Below are positions 40,699 to 63,326 of a stretch of DNA of 64,000 nucleotides, in pieces. Position 1 is the first letter of the stretch; every line of letters starts with the position of its first letter. Location: NCBI RefSeq assembly GCF_900188355.1, contig NZ_FZNX01000001.1:915754-979753 (forward strand), read 5' to 3'. Source of the stretch: Lutibacter flavus (lineage in GTDB: Bacteria; Bacteroidota; Bacteroidia; Flavobacteriales; Flavobacteriaceae). Made by a program: the position numbers and the translations under genes. The notes under the pieces are model-generated. The model had not been told where the DNA came from, did not search any database, and worked only from the letters and a program-made list of their open reading frames with translations.

Positions 40699-42012
40699 AT
40701 GAAAAACAACATATTTTTATTCGCAACATTTTTATTAGTAAGTTTAGGAGCAGTTGCTTCAAACACTACTAATTCAAAATCAACAAACTTTAATCCATAT
40801 TATGACAATAATGGAAATTCATTCACATTTGTTGAGAGAGGCGTAACATTTTCTGTTTTTCAAAATGGAGAATTCGATTTCTACATGAACTCTCGAAATG
40901 GTGTTAATGCAAGCTATCAAAGCAATGGTATTAATATTAGTTATAACTCTGGTTACAATTATGATGCCTATGTACAATATGATGATTTTGGAGCCATCAT
41001 TCAAATTGAAGATATTCCAATTTATTACGACTATTATGGTCGTGTTGAACGAGTTGGGAATATAAATATCAATTATAATAATGGTAGATTGGCACGATTG
41101 GGAGGTTTAAGAGTACACTATAACAATTACGGTTCTTATTCTCACTATTCAGGATTTATAAACATACACAACCGTAATTATGTATATCATCCATACCATA
41201 ACTATTTTTCAAGACCTTTATTCGATTTTAGAATTGTAAGTTACAGACCTTATAGAAATCATTATAAAGCAAATAGATATACATATAATAGAGACCATTC
41301 TAGAAACCATTATTACAATAACAATAAATATTATCGTAATAACAATAAACATTACAATAACAACAAACGTAATGGTCATAATACAAGACAACGTGTTGCA
41401 ACTCAAAATGTTCCTAAAAGAAGAAATGATAATCAAATAGCGAGCCGAAACAGGCACGATATGAAATCGAATACTAGCATTAAAAGAAATACAAAAGGTA
41501 TTAAATCTAATGACAGAAGTATTAATAGAAACACAACTGCAAACAGAACTAATGGAAATTCCAGAGTAGATAGAAACAGAAACACAACTGCAAACAGAAC
41601 TAATGGAAATTCTAGAGTAGATAGAAACATAAACACAACTGTAAACAGAACTAATGGAAATTCTAGAGTAGATAGAAACATAAACACAACTGCAAACAGA
41701 ACAAATGGCAATGCTCGAGTAGAAAATACAAGAAATAGAACCGCTAATAGAGTTAAAGATAATTCAAGAACTGTTAAGAATAGAAATAGTAACGTTACTA
41801 ATAGAAGTCAAAACAGAGTTACTCAAGATCGTTCTGTAACTAATAGAAAGCCTGCTAAAACACAAGAAAGAAGATCTGTAGCAACACAAAACAGATCAAA
41901 AACAACTCAAACTCGCAAACCTGTAAGAGTTCAAAATAGAAAAAGTACATCATCAACTGCTTCTAGACAATCAGGAAAGAATAATAGTAATACAAGAAAA
42001 AGAAGAGGATAG
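40699..42012 (+). CDS. Secreted Arg/Asn-rich repeat protein
   Basis: I do not recognise a function for this 437-residue protein. A signal peptide (MKNNIFLFATFLLVSLGAVA) precedes a Tyr/Asn-rich, beta-type domain to about residue 200 (GVTFSVFQNGEFDFY, IEDIPIYYDYYGRVERVGNI). The rest is low-complexity, very basic and rich in Asn, Arg, Thr and Ser. It contains four 17-residue units of the type NTTANRTNGNSRVDRNR, encoded by 51-bp DNA repeats. The C-terminus is strongly basic (NTRKRRG). It could bind polyanions such as polysaccharide or DNA at the surface, but that is inference. It has a sigma-54-type promoter and its own terminator, so it is a single-gene unit. Confidence 0.75.
   Translation: MKNNIFLFATFLLVSLGAVASNTTNSKSTNFNPYYDNNGNSFTFVERGVTFSVFQNGEFDFYMNSRNGVNASYQSNGINISYNSGYNYDAYVQYDDFGAIIQIEDIPIYYDYYGRVERVGNININYNNGRLARLGGLRVHYNNYGSYSHYSGFINIHNRNYVYHPYHNYFSRPLFDFRIVSYRPYRNHYKANRYTYNRDHSRNHYYNNNKYYRNNNKHYNNNKRNGHNTRQRVATQNVPKRRNDNQIASRNRHDMKSNTSIKRNTKGIKSNDRSINRNTTANRTNGNSRVDRNRNTTANRTNGNSRVDRNINTTVNRTNGNSRVDRNINTTANRTNGNARVENTRNRTANRVKDNSRTVKNRNSNVTNRSQNRVTQDRSVTNRKPAKTQERRSVATQNRSKTTQTRKPVRVQNRKSTSSTASRQSGKNNSNTRKRRG
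41530..41733 (+). repeat. Four tandem 51-bp repeats in the Arg/Asn-rich gene
   Basis: Units 41530-41580, 41581-41631, 41632-41682 and 41683-41733 each encode 17 residues. The first three are nearly identical, while the fourth has several changes. Their length is a multiple of three, so copy changes would keep the frame. Confidence 0.9.
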
Positions 42013-54268: not shown

Positions 54269-54547
54269 TTCTCGATACAATTTTTCTCCATTGCATTTCT
54301 AAAAACCACTCGAAGTGACGTTGATTATGTAAAAATTCCGTCAGTACTAGATACAATTTTTCTCCATTGCATTTTTAAAAATCACTCGAAGTGACGTTGA
54401 TTATGTGAAAATTCCGTCAGTACTAGATACAATTTTTTTTACATTGTATTTCTAAATACCACTAGAAGTGATGTTGAGAGTTACAACTACTCGTCAGTTC
54501 GAGTGATTTCAATAAGAATGAAATTCTTAGTGAAATTGTATCGAGAA
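54269..54547. repeat. 279-bp element with terminal inverted repeats and 76-bp internal tandem repeats
   Basis: Perfect 15-bp inverted repeats (TTCTCGATACAATTT at 54269-54283 and its complement at 54533-54547) bound the element. Inside, 76-bp units start at 54274, 54350 and 54426; the first two differ at three positions, and the third is degenerate. The right end holds a REP-like palindromic piece. It exactly fills the gap between the stop codons of two convergent genes. It has no ORF and no transposase, so it is best described as a MITE- or BIME-like repeat. Confidence 0.85.
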
Positions 54548-59537: not shown

Positions 59538-60852
59538 CTTTTGCAATTGTTACAAGGCTTAAACCATATATAAAGGCAGGAAATGCAACTCTCATTGCAG
59601 AATGGTTAATAGTAAAGAACCAAAATACTAAGAATGCGCTTAAAAGAGCTCTAAAAATTAGAGGTTGCCTTAAAATATGTTTCAAAGGAATAACTAATAA
59701 CAATATTAATATAACCAAACCAATCACACCATGTTCACTTAATAATCTACTCAATTCATTATGGGAAGCTGCTACAATTCCTTGCTCTTCCATCCGTTCA
59801 TATTTTGAACCTCCAACACCAATTCCAAAAAAAGGGTGTTCATAAAAATTATCCAATTCACTTTTAAATAAATCTATTCTACCAGTTGTAATATCATCTT
59901 TAGTAACTCCTGCTGCATTTTTATTGGTATATCTGTTTTCAAGCATACCACCGGTTAAATTTGATGTATAAATCCAAAGAGCAACTCCACTTAATACAAT
60001 AATACCCCCATATTTAACAATATTTTTAAATTTATCTTTTGAAGCAGCAATATAATAAAAAACAAAAAATGTTATTGCTATAAATGCGGTTAACATGCCT
60101 CCTCTAGAAAATGTGATTAACCCTCTAAATACCAGATATATAAAAACAAACACATCTACAAACAGCACAAAAAATACGCGCTTTTTAAAAAACAGAAATA
60201 CTGCAAAAATAAAAACTCCAAATCCTAGTAAAGTTGCAACTTGATTGGGACCAAAACCTCCAGATGCCATAATATTTGCAGCACCTCCAAAACTTATATC
60301 TTGAAAATCAGGTGTTTTAAAATATAAAAAACTTAACATAGAAATAATTGGTAATCCCGCTACAAATAACACATCCAAAATAGTAGACAAGGTTATTTTT
60401 CTTTTATAAAAATAAATTGAAGCAACTCCTAATAAAACTGGTCCACTTAAATTAAAAGCGATTGCCGTTCTAATTGATTCATTAAAAGGAATATCCACAA
60501 AAGCAATTCCAATAAGCAACAATAAAATGTAAATTAAATAACTTACAGATATATGATGTTTTTTTGTCTCAATATAAAGTCCAAAAAATAAAAAAAGTAA
60601 AACTGAATATTTTGGTAATTCATGAAAAACCATACTACCAGCCATTCTAAAAAGCACTTCACCTCCAACTAAATAGGCACTCCAAAATATGGCTTCATTA
60701 TACTTGTTCTCAGATTTATAAATTGAGAAAACACCTATTACAACAATTAATAATGAATAGTATTTAGTAATAGATCCCGATAATAATAAAACTCCTAAAA
60801 CAAGATGAAATAAGGCTAAATAAAAACGCGTATATTTTGAAAAACTAATCAA
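59509..60852 (-). CDS. O-antigen ligase/polymerase-family membrane protein
   Basis: This 447-residue integral membrane protein has about eleven or twelve hydrophobic segments. A large outer loop contains GRIDLFKSELDNFYEHPFFGIGVGGSKYE and then ASHNELSRLLSEHGVIGL, the pattern of the Wzy_C/WaaL family (an Arg in the loop and the His near SHNE). Such proteins either polymerise repeat units (Wzy) or ligate glycans to a lipid carrier (WaaL); the sequence alone does not decide which. The cluster's other genes suit a Wzy-type role. It overlaps both neighbouring glycosyltransferase genes. Confidence 0.87.
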   Translation of the reverse strand: MISFSKYTRFYLALFHLVLGVLLLSGSITKYYSLLIVVIGVFSIYKSENKYNEAIFWSAYLVGGEVLFRMAGSMVFHELPKYSVLLFLFFGLYIETKKHHISVSYLIYILLLLIGIAFVDIPFNESIRTAIAFNLSGPVLLGVASIYFYKRKITLSTILDVLFVAGLPIISMLSFLYFKTPDFQDISFGGAANIMASGGFGPNQVATLLGFGVFIFAVFLFFKKRVFFVLFVDVFVFIYLVFRGLITFSRGGMLTAFIAITFFVFYYIAASKDKFKNIVKYGGIIVLSGVALWIYTSNLTGGMLENRYTNKNAAGVTKDDITTGRIDLFKSELDNFYEHPFFGIGVGGSKYERMEEQGIVAASHNELSRLLSEHGVIGLVILILLLVIPLKHILRQPLIFRALLSAFLVFWFFTINHSAMRVAFPAFIYGLSLVTIAKDEKNSIHRK

Positions 60853-61939
60853 ATTGATAAATTTTTATTAATTTTTTCAGAAAACTTTCTTCTGAAAATT
60901 CTGTTTTAATCTTATTAAAAAAAATTTTACCAAAAGTGCTACGATTTAATTCATTTTCAATTAAATACATCAAACCATCTGCCAATTCTTTTTCATTTTT
61001 TGAATGAACCATCATACCACTTTTCATATGTTCTATAACCTGAGAACAATCTCCAACATTTGTAACAACAACTGGTAAAGACGCCAAACCATATTCTAAC
61101 AATGATACTGGTAACCCTTCTGATTTGGAACTCAATACCCCTATTGTTGTTTGTTCTAGTATATGATAAATATCCAAACGACTACCATACAAAAATACAG
61201 CGTTTTCTAATCCTTCTTCTTTTATAAAAGATTTTATTTTATCTGAATATTCATCATATAAATCCAATCCAACTAAATGTAAGGTCCAATTATTTAAATC
61301 GTTTTCAATAAGTTTAATGGCTTTTAATAAGTTTAAATGATCTTTTTGAGGTCTTAAGTTTGCTAAACAAATTATCCTTTTTCCATTAGTCCCTTTTAAT
61401 ACTGTTTCAATTTTAATTCTATTATTTAATGTTGCAAAATTCGGCAGATAAAATCTATTTTTAGTGTTCAATTTCTTTAAAGACCAATCAAATAATAGTT
61501 TATTTACAGCAATAGTGCTATTAAAAAAATAAGAACAAACTTTTAAAGCAACTGATTTTCTATTTGTTAAAGATTCACTAGATCCGTAATGATCGTGCCA
61601 AACAACATTCAAAAAAGGGTTTATCAATTTTAATTGTACAGCAATAAAAAATGAAGACGAATGGGCATGAATAGTATTAATTTGATGAGATTTAGCATAT
61701 GAATTTAATTTTAAAATTGCTTTTAAATCTAAACTTCTTTTTTTATTCAAAAACAAATAACCAACACCTTTTACTATGCTGTTTTTTAAATCACCTTCTT
61801 TACGAGTTACGCATAAATGAGAATTTACTCCAATCTTATTTAATCCATTTGCTATATTTACAGCCATCATTTCAGCTCCTCCAGGATTTAGAGAATCTAT
61901 GATTTGAATAACTTTTAGCTCATTAACTAATTTCGTCAT
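60845..61939 (-). CDS. Glycosyltransferase family 4
   Basis: This 364-residue enzyme begins with a typical GT4 loop, VIQIIDSLNPGGAEMMAVNIANG, and continues with NTIHAHSSSFFIAVQLKL and VVWHDHYGSSE. The donor lobe has RIICLANLRPQKDHLNLLKAI and KSEGLPVSLLEYGLASLPVVVTNVGD (as a location marker near 273-298), with the two Glu of the E-x7-E motif. Specificity is not known. It overlaps the O-antigen-ligase-like gene by 8 nt. About 76 bp separate it from the next upstream gene, and that gap carries a remnant of a repeat. Confidence 0.88.
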   Translation of the reverse strand: MTKLVNELKVIQIIDSLNPGGAEMMAVNIANGLNKIGVNSHLCVTRKEGDLKNSIVKGVGYLFLNKKRSLDLKAILKLNSYAKSHQINTIHAHSSSFFIAVQLKLINPFLNVVWHDHYGSSESLTNRKSVALKVCSYFFNSTIAVNKLLFDWSLKKLNTKNRFYLPNFATLNNRIKIETVLKGTNGKRIICLANLRPQKDHLNLLKAIKLIENDLNNWTLHLVGLDLYDEYSDKIKSFIKEEGLENAVFLYGSRLDIYHILEQTTIGVLSSKSEGLPVSLLEYGLASLPVVVTNVGDCSQVIEHMKSGMMVHSKNEKELADGLMYLIENELNRSTFGKIFFNKIKTEFSEESFLKKLIKIYQFD

Positions 61940-61980
61940 GTCGGACTTTAATACTTTCTGTTTATTTTAACTACTCTTTA

Positions 61981-62015
61981 ATGAGATCCCCCAAGGCAAG
62001 CTGAGAACGAAGTTT
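61981..62015. repeat. Intergenic remnant of the REP-like sequence
   Basis: ATGAGATCCCCC followed by CAAGCTGAGAACGAAG resembles the cores inside the adjacent glycosyltransferase gene (62546 and 62630). It fills about half of the short gap between two co-directional genes. The match is partial. Confidence 0.4.
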
Positions 62016-63326
62016 TTAAACCAACAACTTCCCTACTTCTTTTTCAAACTTTTCCAAAGTGTATTGTCTAGACCATTCCATCGCTTTATCTACTTGTTCT
62101 TCGAATTTTTTAGGGTTATGAATATACGATTCAATAACTTCAACAATCTCATTAATACTTGGATTCACTATAGATCCTCTTTTATTATTTTCTAACATAT
62201 ATGAAATGCAAGATACATCACTTGTAATTGGTAAACAACCCCAAAACATAGCCTCTGCTACTACTTTTGGCCATCCTTCTGATTTTGATATAAATAATAA
62301 AAAATGTGCTTCTTTATAGGCTTTTTTAACGATTTCTTTATAAGTATTTCCATGTAATCTTACTTCGTTTTCTAGGGAGTTATCTAAAATATATTCTGTC
62401 AAATTAGTTCTTTCTATTCCTTCTCCATACATATCTAATTTTACTAGATATCCTTTTTTCTTTAATTCATGAATAACTTGAACACTTAATAAAGGCTGTT
62501 TTCCAGGAGTTAAACCACCAACAAATAGAAAGTTTAATTCAGCTTCATGAGATCCCCATTCAAGCTGTGAATGACGTTGTTCTTCGTTATCTTCAACTTG
62601 ATTGGAGATTTGTTCATTGTGCTCCATATCATGAGATGCCCAGTCAAGCTGGGATTGACGTTGTTCTTCGTCATTTAAAACTTGATCAAACGTATGTTCT
62701 TGAAATCCAGAAATATCCCTTACCATAATATCTTCAATCTCCAATTCTGAATAACTTGCTGTAAAAAAAGGAACAATATTCTTACTTTGTTTCGGCCATT
62801 TACCATAAACCAACACATTACAATTCTTAGTTAAAAAAGTATTGCTAACAATCCATTTTTGTAAACGGTAACTTAACGGTTGTTTGCTTTTAGGATCCCA
62901 ATTGCCAGCATACTTTACTGTTTTTGGTTTGGAAGGAAATAAAATTTGAACAAAACATCCTAATAAGCCAATATTACCTGGACAACGTAAATGAATATGA
63001 TCTGCCCATTGCATGGCGTTGTAGATTTGAAAACAAATTTTAGAGATTTTAAAAATTGCATTGATACCATTCTTCATTGAAGTAATATCAAAGGAAGGTA
63101 TTTTAATTAGTTCCAAATCGTCATCTCCAACTTGATTGAAGGTCTGTTTATTAAACCGATAGTTACTTTCTATTGAAGTAATATCTTCTTTAGAAAGAGG
63201 CGCAACAATTTGTACCTCATCTACATATTTTAACCACAAATTCATTTCACGAACATAGGGTTCGTAAGCAAAAATCCCTAGTTCATTTGATTTATGTTCA
63301 ACGTGCGTAATTATTACAAACTTCAT
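62016..63326 (-). CDS. Glycosyltransferase family 4 carrying an in-frame repeat-derived insertion
   Basis: This 436-residue protein is a GT-B glycosyltransferase of the surface polysaccharide cluster. The N-lobe contains ADHIHLRCPGNIGLLGC and KYAGNWDPKSKQPLSYRLQ, and the C-lobe starts LNFLFVGGLTPGKQPLLSVQV and has FISKSEGWPKVVAEAMFWG with the donor-site Glu pair. Between the lobes, residues about 208-263 are Glu/Gln/Ser/His-rich and contain two similar segments (EEQRQSQLDWASHDMEHN and EEQRHSQLEWGSHEAELN) encoded by REP-like DNA. This lies in the interdomain linker, where extra length may be tolerated. The frame is intact, so the protein may be active. It follows the GT2 gene by 3 nt. Confidence 0.85.
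   Translation of the reverse strand: MKFVIITHVEHKSNELGIFAYEPYVREMNLWLKYVDEVQIVAPLSKEDITSIESNYRFNKQTFNQVGDDDLELIKIPSFDITSMKNGINAIFKISKICFQIYNAMQWADHIHLRCPGNIGLLGCFVQILFPSKPKTVKYAGNWDPKSKQPLSYRLQKWIVSNTFLTKNCNVLVYGKWPKQSKNIVPFFTASYSELEIEDIMVRDISGFQEHTFDQVLNDEEQRQSQLDWASHDMEHNEQISNQVEDNEEQRHSQLEWGSHEAELNFLFVGGLTPGKQPLLSVQVIHELKKKGYLVKLDMYGEGIERTNLTEYILDNSLENEVRLHGNTYKEIVKKAYKEAHFLLFISKSEGWPKVVAEAMFWGCLPITSDVSCISYMLENNKRGSIVNPSINEIVEVIESYIHNPKKFEEQVDKAMEWSRQYTLEKFEKEVGKLLV
62546..62713 (-). repeat. Two REP-like 84-bp units inside a glycosyltransferase gene
   Basis: Units starting at 62546 and 62630 are 84 bp apart (28 codons). Each begins CATGAGAT, then a hairpin-like core (CCCAGTCAAGCTGGG in the second, decayed in the first), then TGACGTTGTTCTTCGT and ACTTGAT. 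The phase keeps the coding frame. Confidence 0.8.

What the first reader, a model, noticed from the sequence alone, without database searches (positions are those of the whole stretch)
62540..62713. REP-like repeats turned into coding sequence between the two lobes of a glycosyltransferase
Two 84-bp units with a palindromic core, of the kind usually found between genes, lie in frame and encode EEQRxSQLxWxSH-type segments. Both unit length and insertion keep the frame, and the site is the flexible linker between the two Rossmann lobes. The second core still forms a clean hairpin, while the first is decayed, which suggests ageing after duplication. This looks like repeat DNA being exapted as a protein linker.
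Basis: partly seen in the sequence, partly recalled or inferred. Interest (0 to 1): 0.62.

Follow-up and report, generated by a model that had tools for sequence, protein, structure and literature searches.

The report
Intergenic palindromes translated inside a glycosyltransferase
Short palindromic repeats that normally sit between genes have settled, in frame, in two loops of a sugar-transferring enzyme in almost every copy of that enzyme found in one bacterial genus, and the amount of repeat-made protein differs greatly from species to species.

Summary
Confirmed and enlarged. The gene at 62016-63326 (-) is a 436-aa GT4-type glycosyltransferase. The inter-lobe linker is 18 aa in 16 of 16 other-genus orthologues aligned and in one same-genus orthologue (G018); it is 33-221 aa in the other 15 same-genus orthologues aligned. 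A second, N-lobe site (21-23 aa outside the genus) reaches 177 aa, and at least about 525 in one species. 12 of 17 same-genus orthologues hit a REP matrix. Element subtypes and copy numbers differ by species; sites and frames do not: all 108 REPs counted use the same two frames, and 91 of 91 neighbour spacings keep frame against 75 of 176 elsewhere. One equally open but hydrophobic frame is never used. Intragenic REPs are known (Rickettsia RPEs; Di Nocera 2013), so this is an extreme variant of a known kind. Best reading: an old foothold in two permissive loops, then lineage-specific duplication and replacement, filtered for frame and hydrophilicity. Adaptive exaptation is not shown. The window's core was not found elsewhere in its own genome at up to 3 mismatches.

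The parts
62016..63326 (-). GT4-type glycosyltransferase, 436 aa (host gene)
   Evidence: PF00534 E 3.6e-22 and PF13692 E 4.6e-16 on the C-lobe
62532..62750 (-). site 2: inter-lobe linker, 73 aa here, 18 aa in 16 of 16 other-genus orthologues aligned
   Evidence: end points computed from anchor residues
62545..62576 (-). REP, tag in gene direction, encodes RHSQLEWGSH
   Evidence: 42.1 bits (this copy is in the training set); frame
62585..62616 (+). REP in opposite orientation, encodes EQISNQVEDN
   Evidence: 27.4 bits; frame
62629..62660 (-). REP, tag in gene direction, encodes RQSQLDWASH
   Evidence: 27.0 bits; frame
62668..62702 (+). decayed opposite-orientation REP (second unit)
   Evidence: 66% to its counterpart; not in the model's list
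63102..63197 (-). site 1: N-lobe loop, 32 aa here, 21-23 aa in 16 other-genus orthologues aligned
   Evidence: end points computed from anchor residues
63119..63150 (+). REP in opposite orientation in the N-lobe, encodes KQTFNQVGDD
   Evidence: 27.8 bits; frame
61979..62012 (-). possible REP relic in the 3' spacer
   Evidence: 12.1 bits, E 0.36, weak; five relatives have clusters of 6 or more REPs in the spacer on this side

Best explanation
CGTC-tagged REPs entered this glycosyltransferase early in the genus: once at the inter-lobe linker, and later, in a subgroup, at a loop of the N-lobe. Both sites accept extra chain, so the insertions were kept. Later duplication and replacement of whole REPs or head-to-head pairs made the tracts grow, shrink and change subtype. 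Copies survive only if they keep the frame and read as hydrophilic peptide (RHxxLDxxSHD in one orientation, QxxNQVxND in the other). The tracts are most likely tolerated disordered passengers with little function of their own. Shown: sites, frames, absence from the other-genus orthologues seen, subtype differences. Inferred: order of gains, turnover by recombination, tolerance, disorder.
For: Linker 18 aa in 16 of 16 other-genus orthologues aligned and in G018, 33-221 aa in the 15 other same-genus orthologues aligned; N-lobe site 21-23 aa outside against up to 177, and at least 525 aa in G015, where the assembly breaks inside a 240-bp array with 100% matches. REP matrix hits in 12 of 17 same-genus orthologues; on the same 657,760 bases read backwards the matrix gives 0 hits, against 309 forwards, at that cutoff. 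Frames: 60 of 60 tag-sense REPs in one frame and 48 of 48 opposite ones in one frame (63 distinct sequences; G015's two contigs may count some copies twice). Spacing keeps frame in 91 of 91 neighbours within 260 bp in the gene, against 75 of 176 elsewhere. The alternative sense frame is stop-free in 55 of 60 gene copies and in 220 of 238 distinct copies outside the gene, but is hydrophobic (mean KD +1.19 against -0.93) and unused. Elsewhere, of 216 sampled REPs in six genomes, 198 lie between ORFs of 120 aa or more, 7 overlap an edge and 11 lie inside. REPs are abundant in other genera whose copy of this gene carries none (54, 60 and 62 matches in G149, G215, G119). The core tree groups 15 of 16 same-genus proteins apart from insert-free G018.
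Against: Tree support is weak: 0.72 for the 15-protein group, 0.10 for the group holding site 1. If tracts were renewed from each genome's present REP pool they should resemble it best; this held for only 6 of 37 distinct elements in five genomes. For the opposite orientation stops alone explain much of the frame bias: the used frame is open in 163 of 238 outside copies, the next best in 97, and that one is still mildly hydrophilic (-0.36 against -1.26). Four orthologues (G001, G014, G021, G032) have 28-57 extra residues at site 2 but no matrix hit; calling them REP relics is by eye. The structure prediction failed (mean pLDDT 37.6), so loop positions and disorder rest on sequence.
Confidence: 0.6

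Rival explanations
1. Insertion hotspot: the two sites are DNA targets, and different REP families inserted independently in each species.
For: Different subtypes sit at the same two sites in different species. REPs also crowd the adjacent 3' spacer in five of 13 loci, while 6 stretches of 20 kb elsewhere in G006 and G009 gave no matrix hit.
Against: G018 and the 16 other-genus orthologues aligned keep an untouched linker although several such genomes are REP-rich. The window's four REPs match those in other species' copies of this gene at 24-29 of 32 positions and its own genome's other REPs at 23-24; but REPs elsewhere in other genomes match as well (25-29). Pairs coding the same pattern, R/LHxxLDxxS then xxNQVxND, recur in the gene in G000, G006, G009 and G028 with small departures, and with a variant in G008; the CAGCTTGA core itself is in G000, G006 and G009 and in G015.
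Confidence: 0.21
2. Functional exaptation: the hydrophilic repeat linker changes enzyme behaviour (lobe movement, partner binding, solubility) and length variation is selected.
For: Only hydrophilic frames are used. Wobble columns are more variable than expected: resamples reaching the observed value 3 of 2000 (opposite) and 54 of 2000 (sense). Median dN/dS 0.58 over 180 between-species pairs of the 76-nt pair module.
Against: Sequences are not independent. The dN/dS control (0.99) rests on 20 pairs, mostly from one array; a second control had 1 pair (0.85). The length varies nearly 7-fold at site 2 (33-221), which argues against a precise role. Filtering against hydrophobic or stop-bearing reads explains the frame bias without benefit.
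Confidence: 0.14
3. Nucleic-acid role: the palindromes act in the mRNA or DNA and the peptide is a by-product.
For: Pairing is well kept in the gene (means 7.10 and 7.31 of 8, against 7.54 elsewhere).
Against: The window's own four copies keep 6, 8, 6 and 7 pairs. Young copies would be well paired anyway.
Confidence: 0.05

Closest known systems
CGTC-tagged REPs, including intragenic ones (Di Nocera et al. 2013, PMC3733652; abstract, passages and sections 6 and 15 seen)
   Same: CGTC/TGTC tag, 8-bp stem opening with AT, 5-nt loop, dimers, mostly between genes, some inside ORFs in frame; different REPs at about the same site in two Xanthomonas recB genes; no dedicated transposase. Bacteroidetes are among its five phyla.
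   Different: Their larger REP-coded regions are 43-82 aa; here up to 203 extra aa at one site and at least about 525 at the other. Here two fixed sites are shared by most orthologues found in a genus. The tail is not the CCA they give as consensus.
Rickettsia palindromic elements, especially RPE-4/6/7 (PMC3767692, passages seen; PMC10969869, passages seen; Ogata 2000 and 2002 only as cited there)
   Same: Palindromes read in frame in protein genes; orthologues carry different RPE groups at the same locus or near it; ATGAC motif, the complement of our GTCAT; the same open question, hotspot or one old insertion.
   Different: Obligate intracellular Rickettsia with inserts spread over many genes; here Flavobacteriaceae, and one gene with multi-copy arrays stands out.
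GT4 glycosyltransferases (PF00534)
   Same: C-lobe matches PF00534 above cutoff. The insert-free G018 protein has remote PDB relatives such as WlaC 6eji (E 4.3e-9, C-lobe).
   Different: Two REP-filled sites. The best stretches of the 14 PDB hits all start at residue 181 or later, so none covers the N-lobe.

Membership tests
CGTC-tagged REP | terminal CGTC or TGTC tag | tested here: met
   19 of 23 aligned elements have CGTC, 3 TGTC, 1 TGCC; most were picked with a pattern that asked for such a start, so partly circular. The window's four: three CGTC, one CGTT
CGTC-tagged REP | 8-9 bp stem opening with AT, 4-5 nt loop | tested here: met
   RNAalifold structure: 8 bp, 5-nt loop
CGTC-tagged REP | short unpaired tail, mostly CCA | tested here: not met
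   tails here are forms such as CTCATGA, CTTATGA or CTGTTTC; the paper says 'most', so not strictly defining
CGTC-tagged REP | head-to-head dimers predominate | tested here: inconclusive
   close neighbours elsewhere: 70 head-to-head, 38 tail-to-tail, 68 same direction; clusters were over-sampled
CGTC-tagged REP | dispersed, mainly between genes | tested here: met
   198 of 216 sampled between ORFs of 120 aa or more in six genomes, 7 overlapping an edge, 11 inside
RAYT-mobilised REP | Y1 transposase (PF01797) in the genome | tested here: not met
   0 in the window genome; matches in 2 of 10 same-genus genomes searched, G009 (one, with an internal stop) and G015 (four)
Intragenic palindrome (RPE-like) | in frame inside an ORF, host domain intact | tested here: met
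Intragenic palindrome (RPE-like) | orthologues occupied at the same site | tested here: met
Intragenic palindrome (RPE-like) | insert is translated in the cell | not testable with these tools
   needs proteomics
GT4 glycosyltransferase | Glycos_transf_1 domain above cutoff | tested here: met
   79.1 bits against 26.4

The most novel reading that the evidence does not exclude
A polysaccharide glycosyltransferase serves a whole genus as a standing host for extragenic palindromes: two loops have carried translated REPs since early in the genus, and array growth and subtype replacement give each species its own repeat-made linker, so that intergenic repeats feed a fast-evolving, selectable protein segment.
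Probability: 0.22. Interest if true: 0.8.

Novelty: new variant of a known kind. Interest (0 to 1): 0.6.

Why it matters
The Rickettsia japonica paper (PMC3767692, passages) leaves open whether same-site palindromes in orthologous genes mean an insertion hotspot or one old insertion that later changed. Here one gene in many species offers empty sites (G018, other genera), filled sites, several subtypes and an intergenic pool for comparison. It is also a natural series of linker lengths, from 18 to 221 residues, in one enzyme.

Tried and rejected
Chance repeat: rejected (none of 100 shuffles had a match). Pseudogene or non-coding array: rejected for the window by the intact ORF and the strict frame pattern. 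Renewal from each genome's present REP pool: tested, not supported (6 of 37). RAYT mobilisation: no PF01797 in the window genome. 'Only this gene': rejected. Seven further REPs in six genes lie well inside ORFs in G000, G006 and G009. The four other REPs inside ORFs of 120 aa or more are within 11 residues of the ORF's start (three) or score weakly (one, 16.1). Five more lie in doubtful ORFs of 87-93 aa. Structure prediction on a two-sequence alignment was too poor to use (pLDDT 37.6), and no fold search was run. Literature: the listings showed no title or abstract start reporting REPs in a glycosyltransferase or in this genus; a held library only, and capped listings.

Dropped before counts: ORFs under 300 aa in L084 (an 87-aa and a 222-aa frame with 3 and 13 matrix hits) and one weak matrix hit in a 404-aa ORF of L087; G015's N-terminal span (contig end) from the site-1 range; G004 (truncated) from the alignment and tree; 16 of 30 fetched other-genus proteins, the best scoring ones, were used in the tree and the span count, two of them from one genus. 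G029 and G004 were counted for REPs but not for frames. The family search scored at most 6 candidates per genome. Genome searches with the model scored 150 of 816-2736 candidates per genome, so copy numbers are lower bounds, 17 of 23 other-genus genomes had matches. Stretches used were mostly chosen because they hold the gene or because a search had hit there; the 6 stretches L092-L097 were not. It gave confidence 0.62, now 0.60, with the hotspot and exaptation rivals raised by 0.01 each, because REPs elsewhere in other genomes match the window's copies as well as other species' gene copies do.

Full report
OBSERVATION. The reverse-strand ORF 62016-63326 encodes 436 aa. Its C-lobe matches Glycos_transf_1 (79.1 bits, cutoff 26.4) and Glyco_trans_1_4. 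Two units spaced 84 bp lie at 62545-62615 and 62629-62699, 80% identical. Part of the unit recurs 450 bp away at 63118-63152. A covariance model R1 (23 elements from same-genus loci, the window copy at about 62545-62576 among them; 8 pairs, 5-nt loop) finds four elements in the window: 62545-62576 (-), 62585-62616 (+), 62629-62660 (-), 63119-63150 (+). A weak relic-like match lies 3' of the stop.

WHAT THE ELEMENT IS. It has a CGTC tag, an 8-bp stem opening with AT and a 5-nt loop, the features of CGTC REPs as described in PMC3733652 (abstract, passages and sections 6 and 15 read). The tail differs from the consensus CCA. That paper reports intragenic REPs, more than half of them dimers or groups coding 20-30 aa, with larger regions of 43-82 aa, and different REPs at about the same site of recB in two Xanthomonas species. 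PMC3767692 (passages) reports that Rickettsia orthologues can hold different RPE groups at one locus and leaves open hotspot or common origin.

OWN GENOME. At up to 3 mismatches the core occurs only in this gene. With R1 the genome has 40 matches at E 0.01, four of them in this gene (150 of about 1,950 candidates scored, so a lower bound). The gene's copies match the genome's other sampled REPs at 23-24 of 32 positions, other species' copies of this gene at 24-29, and REPs elsewhere in other genomes at 25-29. With pools of equal size the means over 27 positions are 20.5 (own pool), 22.0 (other pools) and 22.5 (best in other species' gene). So the window's copies were not drawn from the genome's present pool as sampled; inheritance within the gene is the likeliest reading, not the only one.

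ORTHOLOGUES. Of 38 genomes of the genus, 17 match the protein at E 1e-40. One named record, L003, is titled Lutibacter (Flavobacteriaceae), and its 675-aa protein agrees with that of G022; the genus of the G genomes is thus taken as Lutibacter by this one record. Of 299 genomes of the family, 112 have the gene at E 1e-60, the window genome among them. Of the other 111, 106 have frames of 368-403 aa (one with an internal TAG); five have 446-846 aa and no REP by the matrix in the stretch fetched. In an alignment with 16 other-genus proteins the linker spans 18 residues in all 16 and in G018, and 33-221 in the remaining 15 same-genus proteins; the N-lobe site spans 21-23 outside and up to 177 inside. 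In G015 the N-lobe tract is longer than the assembly resolves: 525 residues on one contig, 535 on the other, with a 240-bp array of 100% matches on the latter. REP matrix hits fall in 12 of 17 orthologues; G018 has neither hits nor extra residues; G001, G014, G021 and G032 have extra residues without hits.

FRAME. Over 11 loci of 10 genomes, 60 of 60 tag-sense REPs use one frame and 48 of 48 opposite ones use one frame; 63 distinct sequences. Neighbour spacing keeps frame in 91 of 91 cases in the gene and 75 of 176 elsewhere. Of 238 distinct REPs outside the gene, 224 are open in the used sense frame and 220 in the next one, which is hydrophobic and never used; in the opposite orientation 163 are open in the used frame and 97 in the next. 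Wobble columns are relatively more variable in the gene than in resampled REPs (54 of 2000 and 3 of 2000 resamples reach the observed value). Median dN/dS for the 76-nt pair module is 0.58 over 180 between-species pairs; the control, 0.99, has 20 pairs mostly from one array. These last signals are weak because the sequences are related.

SPECIFICITY. In six genomes, of 216 sampled REPs outside the gene's loci 198 lie between ORFs of 120 aa or more, 7 overlap an ORF edge and 11 lie inside. Of the 11, seven lie well inside six other genes: methylmalonyl-CoA mutase/MeaB and Mfd in G000, diphosphomevalonate decarboxylase in G006 (two REPs) and G009, and a P-loop protein in G006 and G009; the last two kinds of gene are hit at matching sites in both species, by eye. 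Mfd is named from its Pfam domains, and 'P-loop protein' is my reading of weak Pfam matches. Three of the remaining four are at ORF starts and one scores weakly. In five of 13 loci (G008, G009, G015, G022, G028) clusters of 6 or more REPs also fill the 3' spacer of the gene, and G023 has two there. Six stretches of 20 kb elsewhere in G006 and G009 gave no matrix hit; R1 gave one weak hit there (E 0.12). Of 23 other-genus genomes searched, 17 have R1 matches, up to 62; the three richest have this gene without inserts.

HISTORY. A core tree puts 15 of 16 same-genus proteins together (support 0.72), with G018 among the outgroups (0.43), and puts the eight site-1 carriers together with very low support (0.10). 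One gain at each site is the simplest reading but is not proven. The idea that tracts are refreshed from the present pool was tested and held for only 6 of 37 elements.

MECHANISM. Most likely two permissive loops received REPs long ago, and later copies spread and changed by duplication and recombination under a frame and hydrophilicity filter. How CGTC REPs move is unknown; no PF01797 transposase was found in the window genome, and 2 of 10 same-genus genomes have matches. The structure prediction was too poor to use.

JUDGEMENT. A new variant of a known kind: intragenic REPs, unusually large and shared across a genus in a single enzyme. 'Exapted as linker' goes beyond the evidence.

Noticed in passing
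L187, L188, L189, L190: Orthologues in two other genera carry a different kind of repeat-like insert in the C-lobe (QWSVVSGQW, TDNPQP-type text). In L189 and L190 the enzyme is fused through such text to what looks by eye like a homologue of the neighbouring glycosyltransferase (window 60845-61939).
   Followed up: partly
L128 (65-3502) and L153 (1084-4101): The window's genome has single in-frame REPs inside a methylmalonyl-CoA mutase/MeaB protein and inside a protein with the domains of the repair helicase Mfd.
   Followed up: partly
L156/L180 and L158/L171: Diphosphomevalonate decarboxylase and a P-loop protein carry different REPs at what looks like the same site in two species.
   Followed up: partly
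L084:7412-8873: In G022 the 3' spacer of the enzyme gene holds a REP array, open for 222 aa in one part, with a pair module very like the one inside the gene.
   Followed up: partly
window 54271-54499 and 41473-41778: Tandem repeats: three copies of 76 bp, and copies with a 51-bp period.
   Followed up: no
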